Part shown: positions 16,147-58,035 of the stretch, piece after piece
Numbering within the stretch: the first letter of the stretch is position 1
How the letters are laid out: each line of letters starts with the position of its first letter
NCBI RefSeq assembly: GCF_003119195.2
Contig: NZ_CP022262.1
Span: 629,001-693,000 of the forward strand
Origin: Azospirillum baldaniorum
Lineage (GTDB): Bacteria > Pseudomonadota > Alphaproteobacteria > Azospirillales > Azospirillaceae
Length of the DNA: 64,000 nucleotides
Direction of reading: 5' to 3'
Made by a program: the position numbers and the translations under genes
The notes under the pieces: model-generated
What the model was told of the DNA's origin: nothing
What the model saw: the letters and a program-made list of their open reading frames with translations, nothing else
Databases searched by the model: none

Positions 16147-17328
16147 ATGTCCCTGCTCGACCCGCTGTTCCGCCAGCATCTCGACCGCCTCGACCGGCGC
16201 CACACGCGCCGCACCCTGCTGCCCGTGCGCCCGGAGGGGGCGGGGCGCATCCGGCGCGGCGGGCGGACGCTGCTGAACTTCTCCAGCAACGACTATCTCG
16301 GCCTCGCCTCCCATCCGCTGCTGGTGGAGCGCGCCGGCGACTGGACGCGGCGCTGGGGGGCGGGGGCCACGGCGTCGCGTCTCGTCTGCGGCACGCTGGA
16401 GCTTCACGCGGAGGTCGAGGCGAAGCTCGCCCGGCTCAAGGGCACGGAGGCGGCGCTTCTGTTCAATTCCGGCTGGCAGGCCAACGCCGCCGTCCTGCCC
16501 GCCCTGTTCGACCGCGAGCTTCTGGGCGTGGAGGCCCAGGTCTTCACCGACCGGCTGAACCACGCCAGCCTGCACCATGGCTGCGCCGCCGCCGGGGTGC
16601 GGCAGATCCGCTTCCGCCACAACGACCTCGACCATCTGGAAACGCTTCTGTCCCAACGCACGGGCGAGCCGGGCATGCGCTTCATCGTGACGGAGAGCGT
16701 CTTCAGCATGGACGGCGACCGCGCCGACGTGCCGGCGCTGGCCGCGCTGGCGGAGCGGCACGGCGCTTTCCTGTTCCTTGACGAGGCGCACGCGACCGGC
16801 GTGCTCGGCCCGCGCGGGATGGGGCTGGCGGCGCTGGGCGGCGGGCGCGTGGACCTCGCCATGGGCACCTTCAGCAAGGCGCTGGGCGGCTTCGGTGCCT
16901 ACGTGGCGGGGTCGAGGGAACTCTGCGACTATCTGGTGAACCGCTGCGGCGGGCTGATCTACGCCACCGCCCTGCCGCCCGCCGTGCTGGGGGCGATGGA
17001 CGCGGCGCTCGACCTCGTGCCGAAGCTGGACGCGGAGCGTGCGCGGCTCCAGGCCATGGCCGAACGGCTGCGGACCGCCTTGCACGGGCTGGGCGTCGCC
17101 ACGGCGGGGTCGAGCACGCAGATCGTCCCGGCCATCACCGGAGCGGAGGAGGACGCGCTGGCCCTCGGCCGGCGGCTGGAGGAGCGCGGCATCCTGGGCA
17201 TCGCCATCCGCCCGCCGACCGTTCCGCCGGGCACCAGCCGCCTGCGCTTCGCCCTGTCCGCCGCCCACACGGACGCCGACCTGGAGACGTTGGTGAGCGC
17301 GGTGGCCGACGCCTGGAGCCGGCGATGA
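16147..17328 (+). CDS. bioF: 8-amino-7-oxononanoate synthase
   Basis: PLP enzyme that condenses pimeloyl-ACP/CoA with L-alanine, the first step of biotin ring assembly. It has 393 residues with DEAHATG at 212-218 and the PLP lysine K244 in GTFSKALGG, as in BioF and other alpha-oxoamine synthases. The start chosen is the ATG at 16147; the frame is open further upstream to 16015 but that part overlaps the divergent DUF123 gene. It heads a five-gene biotin operon and overlaps the next gene by 4 bp. I see no BioR-like or BirA-like operator in the 88-bp upstream region. Confidence 0.94.
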   Translation: MSLLDPLFRQHLDRLDRRHTRRTLLPVRPEGAGRIRRGGRTLLNFSSNDYLGLASHPLLVERAGDWTRRWGAGATASRLVCGTLELHAEVEAKLARLKGTEAALLFNSGWQANAAVLPALFDRELLGVEAQVFTDRLNHASLHHGCAAAGVRQIRFRHNDLDHLETLLSQRTGEPGMRFIVTESVFSMDGDRADVPALAALAERHGAFLFLDEAHATGVLGPRGMGLAALGGGRVDLAMGTFSKALGGFGAYVAGSRELCDYLVNRCGGLIYATALPPAVLGAMDAALDLVPKLDAERARLQAMAERLRTALHGLGVATAGSSTQIVPAITGAEEDALALGRRLEERGILGIAIRPPTVPPGTSRLRFALSAAHTDADLETLVSAVADAWSRR

Positions 17329-18128
17329 CTCGGCCGGCGATGACCCAGCCGCTGTTCGTTTTCGTCCATGGCTGGGGGTTCGGCCCCGCCGTCTGGGATG
17401 GTTTGCGGAACGCCCTTTCCGAGGTGGAGAGCGTGGCGGTGGATCTGGGCTTCTGCGGCCCGCCATTGATTCCTGCGCTCCCCACCGGACGCCCCGTCGT
17501 CGCGGTTGGTCATTCCTTCGGGGGGCTGTGGCTGCTGCACGAGCGGCCCTTCGCCTGGGACGGGCTGGTGCTGGTCAACGGCTTCCCCCGCTTCACCGAG
17601 GGCGACGGCTTCGCCCCCGCCACGCCGCGCCGGCTGCTGGACCGCATGATCGCGCGCTTCGACACGGCACCGGAGGCGGTGACCGCGGACTTCCTGCGCC
17701 GCTGCGGTGTCGAGACTCCATTGCCCGAGGGGCTGGACGCGGCCCGGCTGGGCGACGCGCTGCGGGCGCTGCGCGACTGGGACGCCCGCGACGCGCTCAC
17801 CGGCCCAGTGCTGGCCCTGGCGGGGGCGCAGGACCCCATCGTCCCGCCGGCCATGACTGAACAGGCGTTTCACGACCACTCTGTCCCTCGCCCCTCCGGG
17901 GAGAGGGTGGTGCCGAAGGCGCCGGGTGAGGGGGTTCTCGGGGAACCGGACGATCAGGCATTGCGCAACCCCCTCACCCTAACCCTCTCCCCAGGGGGGA
18001 GAGGGGATGGTGGATACGGTCAGATTTCGGTCGAGTGGCACCCGGAGGGCGGGCATCTGCTGCCGCTGACCGCGCCGGGCTGGTGCGCGGAGCGGATCGC
18101 CGCCTTCGCCGCCGGACTGACGGCATGA
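17325..18128 (+). CDS. bioH: BioH-like alpha/beta hydrolase carrying an in-frame repeat insertion
   Basis: Carboxylesterase expected to hydrolyse pimeloyl-ACP methyl ester, ending the BioC-BioH route to pimelate. The 267-residue protein has the nucleophile S64 in GHSFG, the acid D170 in AGAQDPIVPP and H244 in EGGHLLP. Residues about 186-232 (starting SVPRPSGERV) do not belong to the fold: they are encoded by a palindromic DNA repeat (17885-18006) that also occurs between genes at 47.9 and 57.9 kb. Without it the protein would be about 220 residues. The insertion keeps the frame and lies in the loop between Asp and His. It overlaps bioF and bioCD by 4 bp each. ATG 17340 is an alternative start. 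Confidence 0.85.
   Translation: MTRPAMTQPLFVFVHGWGFGPAVWDGLRNALSEVESVAVDLGFCGPPLIPALPTGRPVVAVGHSFGGLWLLHERPFAWDGLVLVNGFPRFTEGDGFAPATPRRLLDRMIARFDTAPEAVTADFLRRCGVETPLPEGLDAARLGDALRALRDWDARDALTGPVLALAGAQDPIVPPAMTEQAFHDHSVPRPSGERVVPKAPGEGVLGEPDDQALRNPLTLTLSPGGRGDGGYGQISVEWHPEGGHLLPLTAPGWCAERIAAFAAGLTA
17885..18006. repeat. Palindromic repeat, copy A (inside bioH-like gene)
   Basis: Composite palindrome of about 122 bp: a first hairpin (CCCTCGCCCC / GGGGAGAGGG), a small GC hairpin, a GTGAGGGGG arm that pairs with CCCCCTCAC some 40 bp later, then CCTAA and a closing CCCTCTCCCC / GGGGAGAGGGG hairpin. The same order of parts occurs in copies B and C between genes. Here it is read through as part of the bioH-like protein. 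Confidence 0.85.
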
Positions 18129-47842: not shown

Positions 47843-47879
47843 CGAAGCGGCGCAGGGCGGGCGCATTCGGCTTTCATAA

Positions 47880-47997
47880 CCCTCTCCCCTCTGGGGAGAG
47901 GGTGGCCCGAAGGGCCGGTGAGGGGGATGCGCGTGACGGTGCGTCCGGCACAGGCGCAACCCCCTCACCCTAACCCTCTCCCCAGAGGGGAGAGGGG
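47880..47997. repeat. Palindromic repeat, copy B (between chvE and gguA)
   Basis: The most regular copy: hairpin CCCTCTCCCC/GGGGAGAGGG, hairpin GGCCC/GGGCC, arm GTGAGGGGG paired with CCCCCTCAC about 35 bp on, CCTAA, and closing hairpin CCCTCTCCCC/GGGGAGAGGGG. It lies 38 bp after the chvE stop. By analogy with REP/BIME elements it may protect the chvE mRNA 3' end. Confidence 0.88.
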
Positions 47998-48069
47998 ATT
48001 GAAAATGCGAACGACCCGCCACCGGACTGAGGTGCGCTCGGGCGATCGCAGGTTCCTTGGAGGATTCTC

Positions 48070-57899: not shown

Positions 57900-57929
57900 G
57901 TCCCTTAAGCCACACGGCTCTTCATAACC

Positions 57930-58035
57930 CTCTCCCCTCTGGGGAGAGGGTGGCCCGCAGGGCCGGTGAGGGGGTTGCGCATGGCACTAACGTTTGGCAC
58001 AAGCGCACCCCCCTCTCCCCGGAGGGGAGAGGGGA
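57930..58035. repeat. Palindromic repeat, copy C (after uxaB)
   Basis: Starts with the same CCCTCTCCCC/GGGGAGAGGG hairpin, small GGCCC/GGGCC hairpin and GTGAGGGGG arm as copy B, but the right half is shortened: the CAC-CCTAA-CCCT part is missing and the closing hairpin follows the C run directly. It lies about 30 bp after the uxaB stop. Confidence 0.85.

What the first reader, a model, noticed from the sequence alone, without database searches (positions are those of the whole stretch)
17880..18020. Palindromic repeat inserted in frame into an essential-looking biotin gene
About 122 bp inside the bioH-like gene match, part by part, two intergenic palindromic repeats at 47.9 and 57.9 kb. It adds about 47 residues (roughly 186-232) between catalytic D170 and H244 while the frame, the triad and the 4-bp overlaps with bioF and bioCD are all kept. 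Protein-coding insertions of mobile palindromes are known from Rickettsia (RPE elements), but I know of none described in this group. Two copies in transcribed gaps and one in a gene suggest a mobile, frame-tolerant repeat family. If the insert is tolerated, it shows how new loops arise from non-coding DNA.
Basis: partly seen in the sequence, partly recalled or inferred. Interest (0 to 1): 0.8.

Follow-up and report, generated by a model that had tools for sequence, protein, structure and literature searches.

The report
Triplex repeat inside a biotin gene
A short, widespread self-pairing DNA repeat sits inside a biotin-synthesis gene of soil bacteria without breaking its reading frame, and following it up showed that repeats of this kind regularly flank a small gene for a DNA-cutting enzyme that may be what moves them.

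Summary
A palindromic repeat unit (17884-18007; consensus 122 bp) sits in frame in a BioH-like gene (17325-18128), with two intergenic copies in the window. It belongs to a known family, the G/C-rich intrastrand-triplex motif (TM), alias E. coli BoxC. Its core has 151 matches in the genome; 3 of 110 mapped copies lie inside predicted genes (bioH, ruvC, dnaE2), so the family avoids genes rather than being frame-tolerant.

The bioH insert (49 codons, 17877-18023) was seen in 12 Azospirillum sequences and is absent from 5. Its three internal indels are multiples of 3. pN/pS is 1.08 in the insert but 0.33 before and 0.22 after it. AlphaFold gives 186-232 as the only long low-confidence stretch of an alpha/beta-hydrolase. 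I read it as a tolerated, not selected, loop.

New lead: DUF559 (Vsr-like nuclease) genes have TM-like motifs beside them in 57 of 60 loci examined (HNH control 0 of 30; random positions 14 of 300), often as terminal inverted repeats. The dispersed element looks like such a unit without its gene. That DUF559 moves, or moved, the repeats is inferred, not shown. Four literature searches listed no report of the link.

The parts
17325..18128 (+). BioH-like alpha/beta hydrolase gene (267 aa) between bioF and a bioD-annotated gene
   Evidence: Pfam Abhydrolase_6 1.9e-8; orthologues annotated alpha/beta (fold) hydrolase between bioF and bioD; fold matches include BioH 4nmw, 6k5e
17877..18023 (+). net insertion of 49 codons (residues 185-233) relative to insert-free relatives
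17884..18007 (+). TM (BoxC-type) palindromic unit: two triplex motifs in inverted orientation
   Evidence: nhmmer cluster C7:646884-647007; consensus
17885..17936 (+). left triplex motif: hairpin CCCTCGCCCC..GGGGAGAGGG, loop with a small stem, third strand GGGTGAGGG
17967..18005 (-). right triplex motif (type A, TTA loop) in opposite orientation
17514..17516 (+). catalytic Ser64 codon (GHSFG)
   Evidence: invariant in A1 and A2
17832..17834 (+). catalytic Asp170 codon
   Evidence: invariant in A1 and A2
18054..18056 (+). catalytic His244 codon, downstream of the insert
   Evidence: invariant in A1, nearly invariant in A2
47877..47998 (+). intergenic TM unit
57925..58035 (+). intergenic TM unit

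Best explanation
The insert is one copy of a short dispersed element built from two intrastrand-triplex motifs in inverted orientation (TM/BoxC family). SHOWN: it is shared by a group of Azospirillum around A. brasilense and absent from others, is kept in frame, and adds a loop of low predicted confidence between the Asp and the His of the triad, with no sign of protein-level selection on its own residues. SHOWN: in the Pseudomonadota loci examined, motifs of the same architecture, in genome-specific variants, sit immediately beside DUF559 nuclease genes, often on both sides as terminal inverted repeats with the hairpin outward. INFERRED: the dispersed units are gene-less (MITE-like) derivatives of TM-DUF559-TM units, and DUF559 cuts at the folded motif and so moves, or moved, them in trans, as RAYT is thought to do for REP (recalled). 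INFERRED: insertions into genes were mostly purged; the bioH, ruvC and dnaE2 copies survived because net length and frame happened to be harmless.
For: Insertion: empty sites, 12 carrier sequences, indels of -3, -12 and +33 bp. pN/pS 1.08 (codon bootstrap 0.76-1.5) in the insert against 0.33 before and 0.22 after. pLDDT below 50 at 186-232 in an otherwise confident model. Family: 151 core matches, sharply bounded unit, E. coli type A + type B inverted pairs. DUF559: TM-like motif within about 450 bp in 30/31 genus and 27/29 phylum loci, HNH 0/30, random 14/300; terminal inverted repeats 13/31 and 14/29 against 0/30 and 0/300. TM calls by 150-bp distance bin 116, 16, 4, 3, 2, 2; 20 of 58 full-length loci have inverted copies on both sides with hairpins outward. 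Genome level 18/24 against 29/176, p=1.2e-8. Variant specificity. Empty and filled prfA-prmC sites.
Against: No movement was observed and no target-site duplication was resolved. 6 of the 24 genomes with 2 or more TM matches have no DUF559 match, and E. coli, which carries BoxC, is not one of the 2 of 14 control genomes where DUF559 rings. 29 of 47 genomes with strong DUF559 have fewer than 2 matches to that exact TM pattern. With the strict Azospirillum core only 20/31 genus and 4/29 phylum DUF559 loci are positive; the higher counts need the generic motif test. One variant occurs once only. A Caulobacter DUF559 protein (VsrA) is read by its authors as a mismatch-repair nuclease (PMC12907096, passages). 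Many DUF559 loci are orthologous, so the 60 are not independent, and they are the best-scoring hits, not a random draw. HNH loci seem largely conserved neighbourhoods and the random control is from one replicon. pS in the insert is lower than in the rest of the gene (0.129 against 0.216), unexplained.
Confidence: 0.72

Rival explanations
1. DUF559 is a passenger or a repair nuclease; TM repeats spread by another route (slippage, illegitimate recombination, an unknown transposase), and DUF559 genes merely travel between TM copies or use them as terminators.
For: TM-bearing genomes without a DUF559 match; Vsr-like repair role proposed for Caulobacter VsrA; Holder et al. found no mobility genes near E. 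coli copies.
Against: TM calls fall from 116 within 150 bp of the domain to 16 and then 4 per bin; inverted both-sided arrangement with genome-specific variants; the HNH control loci show none.
Confidence: 0.35
2. The bioH segment is an ordinary ancestral low-complexity loop that some species lost.
For: Shared by 12 sequences; low-complexity peptide.
Against: DNA matches the genomic repeat part by part; absent from 5 Azospirillum sequences and from the outgroup homologues aligned; residues unconstrained, pN/pS 1.08.
Confidence: 0.03
3. The loop has been domesticated: the repeat-encoded residues gained a function (partner binding, regulation).
For: Retained across several species; DNA of the insert differs less between species than the flanks at synonymous sites.
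Against: pN/pS near 1 and no third-position excess; low-confidence loop in the model; absent from A. argentinense MTCC4035 with an otherwise intact gene.
Confidence: 0.08
4. The insert is held similar by DNA- or RNA-level constraint or by gene conversion with other copies, not by the protein (compatible with the best explanation).
For: Synonymous difference in the insert is about 60% of that upstream (0.129 against 0.216).
Against: The central spacer differs in G020 and G036; no test of conversion tracts was made.
Confidence: 0.35

Closest known systems
TM / BoxC / PIT intrastrand triplex motif (Holder et al. 2015, PMC4666352)
   Same: Hairpin [20 protein letters not shown] plus third strand GGGTGAGGG; type A (TTA loop) paired with type B in inverted orientation (five pairs in E. 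coli, about 85-129 bp overall by its Table 1); many copies.
   Different: Reported as always intergenic in E. coli MG1655 and with no mobility genes nearby; here 3 of 110 are inside genes in frame, and DUF559 nuclease genes lie beside such motifs.
REP/REPIN with RAYT transposase (largely recalled)
   Same: Short palindromic, mostly extragenic repeats in many copies; a nuclease gene flanked by the same repeats in inverted orientation; genome-specific variants.
   Different: Nuclease is DUF559 (PD-(D/E)XK, Vsr-like), not a tyrosine transposase; no GTAG/CGTC end in the consensus; third strand present.
Rickettsia palindromic elements (RPE; recalled)
   Same: Palindromic repeat inserted in frame in protein-coding genes and tolerated.
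   Different: Sequences were not aligned here; in this genome gene insertions are rare and the family is mostly intergenic.
MITEs (recalled)
   Same: Short gene-less unit with inverted terminal repeats that match those of a larger gene-bearing unit.
   Different: No target-site duplication resolved; the partner is not a known transposase.
Vsr-like DUF559 protein VsrA of Caulobacter (PMC12907096); solved relative 3hrl
   Same: DUF559 domain (VsrA, by its authors); 3hrl is similar in sequence to the DUF559 protein of L206.
   Different: VsrA is studied as a putative mismatch-repair nuclease; no repeat context is mentioned in the passages seen.

Membership tests
TM/BoxC triplex motif | C-rich arm, G-rich arm, third G-rich strand | tested here: met
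   against Table 1 of PMC4666352
TM/BoxC triplex motif | type A + type B inverted pairs about 100 bp long | tested here: met
   type B loop enlarged to a small stem; E. coli pairs described
TM/BoxC triplex motif | high copy number | tested here: met
   151 core matches, control 0
TM/BoxC triplex motif | intergenic location | tested here: not met
   not met by this copy; 96 of 110 copies overlap no predicted gene
TM/BoxC triplex motif | triplex formation in vitro | not testable with these tools
   needs CD or NMR
REP/REPIN-RAYT | GTAG or CGTC tag at one end | tested here: not met
   consensus TAaCCC...GGGGA; definition from title and start of abstract of PMC3733652 (search listings)
REP/REPIN-RAYT | tyrosine transposase gene flanked by the repeats | not tested
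   no RAYT search was run
RPE | in-frame insertion within coding genes | tested here: met
   bioH, dnaE2, ruvC
RPE | Rickettsia RPE sequence family | not tested
   no RPE sequence was aligned
MITE | short unit with defined ends and inverted terminal repeats | tested here: met
   122-bp consensus, sharp information drop at both ends
MITE | target-site duplication | tested here: inconclusive
   best signal 18 against 7.35 expected of 90 for a dinucleotide, the best of 648 combinations tried
MITE | matching terminal repeats on a gene-bearing unit | tested here: met
   DUF559 loci; L223 shows the same type-B stem as the dispersed element; function inferred
BioH | alpha/beta-hydrolase fold with Ser-Asp-His in a bio operon | tested here: met
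   sequence similarity to solved BioH weak, E=6e-4
BioH | pimeloyl-ACP methyl ester esterase activity | not testable with these tools
   needs complementation or assay

The most novel reading that the evidence does not exclude
DUF559 Vsr-like nucleases are the mobilising enzymes of the TM/BoxC triplex repeats: TM-DUF559-TM is an autonomous element whose terminal repeats can fold into triplexes, and the dispersed TM pairs in Azospirillum (and orphan BoxC copies in E. coli) are its gene-less derivatives. This would be a transposition-like system with a PD-(D/E)XK nuclease and structure-forming ends, parallel to but unrelated to REP-RAYT.
Probability: 0.5. Interest if true: 0.9.

Novelty: new variant of a known kind. 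Interest (0 to 1): 0.78.

Why it matters
TM/BoxC repeats are reported from more than 260 prokaryotes, and the paper that surveyed them found no mobility genes near the E. coli copies (PMC4666352). A nuclease gene bracketed by such repeats gives a testable candidate for how they spread, and gives DUF559 (Pfam: protein of unknown function) a context. The bioH case shows a repeat kept as a frame-preserving protein loop without visible selection on its residues, and the ruvC case shows a TM unit joining a core gene to a DUF559 domain.

Tried and rejected
Peptide-string paper searches gave 0 papers; the DNA-string search gave one paper, PMC7311995, where the match lies in E. coli sequence listed as appendix data (passage). 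Two early gene finders were discarded: the first missed bioH, the second put 273 of 600 test segments in the right frame. The third put 941 of 948 right, but was tested on genes it was trained on. The first AlphaFold model (10 sequences) had mean pLDDT 47 and was not used. An extended outer palindrome beyond the unit was tested and dropped (6 of 90 against 1.9 expected for one motif, no clear excess in general pairing). Target-site duplication was not resolved. Variant GGGGGAAGGTAGGGATGGGG was not dispersed (1 match). The reversed-pattern control is uninformative because the pattern is nearly its own mirror. Rows dropped: 2 of 60 DUF559 loci shorter than 3290 bp left out (in one search they were kept, although the centre of the short L213 is not its domain; it counts as a miss); 4 distant homologues left out of the codon alignment; L070 (partial) and L071 (stop codon) left out of A2. 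Considered and rejected: dead gene (downstream codons under purifying selection); ordinary low-complexity loop; frame-tolerant family.

Full report
THE OBSERVATION. The window lies at G000:C7:629001-693000 of a 7.68-Mb, seven-contig genome. Its closest named relatives among the records searched are Azospirillum argentinense and A. brasilense. The ORF 17325-18128 is open over 267 codons. Inside it lie two hairpins of the form [20 protein letters not shown] in inverted arrangement. The hairpin pattern with CCCTCTCCCC occurs 5 times in the window against a mean of 0 in 100 shuffles, and a 21-mer core is shared exactly with the 47.9-kb copy.

WHAT THE REPEAT IS. The 21-mer core (up to 2 mismatches) has 151 matches in the genome against 0 for the reversed control. 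An HMM built from 46 distinct copies found 110 clusters in 2.386 Mb of fetched stretches. Most stretches were chosen because they hold copies; contig C7 (16 clusters) and 14 stretches were not. Ninety full-length copies give a consensus of 122 bp with sharp ends, TAaCCC to GGGGA. The unit is two intrastrand-triplex motifs facing each other. It matches the G/C-rich triplex motif, TM, also known as BoxC or PIT. In E. coli MG1655 that motif has 23 copies, five inverted type A plus type B pairs, always intergenic (PMC4666352: abstract and outline, search passages, sections 15 and 18 and part 1 of section 20 read). blastn with the 47.9-kb copy finds matches in 5364 of 5426 E. coli genomes, none covering 80% of the query, and in 468 plasmid records, 48 of them Azospirillum.

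THE INSERTION IN bioH. A protein search of the own genome and 80 relatives gave matches in 34 of 81 genomes, many of them only to repeat-encoded peptides elsewhere. Nineteen bioH homologues were aligned. Eleven genomes, the own one included, carry the segment in frame. G017, G006 and G012 lack it at that place; G018, seen only as pieces on two contigs, also lacks it; so does outgroup G064. Among named plasmids, A. argentinense Az39 carries it and A. argentinense MTCC4035 lacks it; MTCC4038 is identical to G019 in the tree and was not counted. That makes 12 carriers and 5 non-carriers in the genus. The net insertion is 49 codons, 17877-18023. About 23-25 bp of it are not part of the repeat unit and are unexplained. 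Indels inside the insert are -3 (G020), -12 (G036) and +33 bp (Az39), all multiples of 3. G012 (Roseomonas genomospecies 6 ATCC 49961, L068) has an independent in-frame repeat-like insertion after about residue 46 of the same gene.

SELECTION AND STRUCTURE. Over 12 insert-bearing sequences, pN/pS (Nei-Gojobori, uncorrected) is 0.33 before the insert, 1.08 in it (codon bootstrap 0.76-1.50) and 0.22 after it, on the stretch that holds the catalytic His. Differences in the insert are spread over codon positions 0.31/0.42/0.27, against 0.26/0.19/0.55 in the flanks; Jukes-Cantor dN/dS is 1.08 in the insert and 0.27 in the flanks. The gene is therefore read through and maintained, while the inserted residues look unconstrained. 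pS in the insert is lower than upstream (0.129 against 0.216), which points to DNA-level constraint, gene conversion or younger shared ancestry; I did not resolve this. MTCC4035 groups with Az39 on the gene tree (support 0.993), but the 20 codons before the site are closer to G017 (0.917) than to Az39 (0.817), which suggests an insert-free allele acquired by local recombination. AlphaFold with 16 sequences gives mean pLDDT 80.7; apart from residues 1-3, the only stretch under 50 is 186-232. Foldseek matches are esterases and hydrolases including BioH (4nmw, 6k5e). Sequence similarity to solved BioH is weak (E=6e-4).

HOW OFTEN GENES ARE HIT. With a six-frame gene model (941 of 948 test segments in the right frame, tested on its own training genes; coding fraction 0.86), 96 of 110 copies overlap no predicted gene, 3 lie inside one, and the other 11 touch a gene end, mostly a 3' end. 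The three are bioH, ruvC and dnaE2 (Pfam RuvC, DUF559, DNA_pol3_alpha). The dnaE2 query crosses its insert (query 97-134). It aligns without a break at 83-97% identity in G013, G012, G043, G020, G044, G005 and G006, and at 68-78% in nine more; it falls into two pieces that meet within 15 bp, as expected without the insert, in G031, G017 and G018; in G008, G036, G034 and G019 it breaks inside the insert, so these may carry another or a shorter copy; the remaining genomes were not sorted. No loci were fetched to read them. The commonest unit is 122 bp (49 of 90), 15 of 90 are a multiple of 3, and units have fewer open frames than random DNA (2.34 against 3.83 of 6). So 'frame-tolerant family' is not supported; insertion into genes is rare and presumably purged.

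THE DUF559 LINK. The ruvC copy joins RuvC to a DUF559 domain in one ORF; a RuvC-linker-DUF559 ORF was recognised by motif in 9 of 31 genus DUF559 loci, and 4 of the 31 could not be read by that script. The own genome has two DUF559 matches, both within 60 bp of a TM core. 42 of 45 genus genomes and 68 of 200 phylum genomes have a DUF559 match. I examined the 31 + 29 loci returned with sequence, which are best-scoring hits. With the strict Azospirillum core, 20/31 and 4/29 are positive. With a generic triplex-motif test, 30/31 and 27/29 have one within about 450 bp of the domain; 30 HNH (PF01844) loci of the phylum search gave 0, and random positions on C7 gave 14/300. Terminal inverted repeats (E<=1e-5) were found in 13/31 and 14/29, against 0/30 and 0/300. 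In the 58 full-length loci, TM calls by 150-bp bin from the domain edge are 116, 16, 4, 3, 2, 2; 54 have one within 150 bp, 22 on both sides, 20 inverted with the hairpin outward; at single searches have the hairpin outward and 40 inward. One hairpin can be counted on both strands.

GENOME LEVEL AND VARIANTS. Reading with thresholds E<1e-10 for DUF559 and 2 or more TM matches, 18 of 24 TM genomes against 29 of 176 others have DUF559 (p=1.2e-8; relatedness not corrected). Variants follow the genome. GGGGAGAGGGTTGGGAGAGGG is found only in G231 (9 matches, two flanking a DUF559) and G060 (9, one beside a DUF559) of 12 genomes. GGGGGAGGGTTGGGGAGAGGG is only in G113 (5) and G235 (3), same genus. 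GGGGGAAGGTAGGGATGGGG is found once, in G098. The repeats at L223 carry the same TGGCCCGAAGGGCCGG stem as the dispersed Azospirillum unit.

FILLED AND EMPTY SITES. prmC was found in 44 of 45 genomes; the 30 loci returned were examined. Between prfA and prmC, 25 of 30 have 465-607 bp; of these I read only four (L305, L307, L308, L310), which contain a DUF559 reading frame by similarity to L206 (by eye) and triplex-type repeats, on both sides in L310 and, altered, in L307. Four are empty (8-43 bp: G028, G026, G007, G032), and G027 has 89 bp with a lone hairpin. This fits a unit that can be gained or lost and can leave a gene-less repeat, but the direction was not established.

MECHANISM. Inferred: DUF559, a Vsr-like PD-(D/E)XK nuclease, recognises the folded triplex ends and moves the unit and, in trans, gene-less pairs. 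Not shown: cleavage, movement, target duplication. Against: TM genomes without DUF559 (6 of 24, and E. coli), and a repair role proposed for Caulobacter VsrA (PMC12907096, passages only). The only solved DUF559 relative found is 3hrl.

LITERATURE. Searches that bear on novelty: sequence strings; palindromic repeats, BoxC; DUF559 with repeat/palindromic, endonuclease/mobile, inverted repeat; intrastrand triplex. No listing showed a DUF559-TM link; apart from PMC4666352, PMC12907096 and one passage of PMC7311995, only listings were seen. The library holds open-access PMC papers only, so this is a limited negative. RPE, REP-RAYT and MITE comparisons are largely recalled.

VERDICT. The bioH insertion is real, shared by a group of Azospirillum, tolerated and without sign of selection on its residues. 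The repeat family is known. The new part is the strong positional association with DUF559 genes, with a mobiliser role at about even odds.

Noticed in passing
L068 (Roseomonas genomospecies 6 ATCC 49961, G012), bioH after about residue 46: An independent second in-frame repeat-like insertion in the same bioH gene at another site, encoding LTLPPPGGGPLPLPGRERG.
   Followed up: partly
G000:C1, about 1464193-1465221 (L163:9193-10221): RuvC extended by a TM-encoded linker and a DUF559 domain in one ORF; such ORFs were recognised in 9 of 31 genus DUF559 loci.
   Followed up: partly
G000:C1:2850980-2854264 (L164:6980-10264): dnaE2/imuC with an in-frame TM insert (aa 796-833 of 1094), apparently shared by some but not all relatives.
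   Followed up: partly
L078 (A. argentinense MTCC4035) against L079 (Az39): Same named species, one without and one with the bioH insert; local similarity suggests recombination near the site.
   Followed up: partly
L079 (Az39) bioH insert: In-frame 33-bp near-tandem duplication inside the insert.
   Followed up: no
L067 (MAG labelled Magnetospirillum sp.): bioH 85% identical to the window protein; the MAG label may be wrong.
   Followed up: no
L083 1501-1624, L084 1501-1545, L085 1501-1611: Annotated 3' ends (SRPBCC, HlyD, XdhC) lie inside TM matches, as do 10 predicted gene 3' ends in the own genome.
   Followed up: partly
L243: DUF559 gene with a 101-bp, 99% inverted repeat that the TM test does not recognise.
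   Followed up: no
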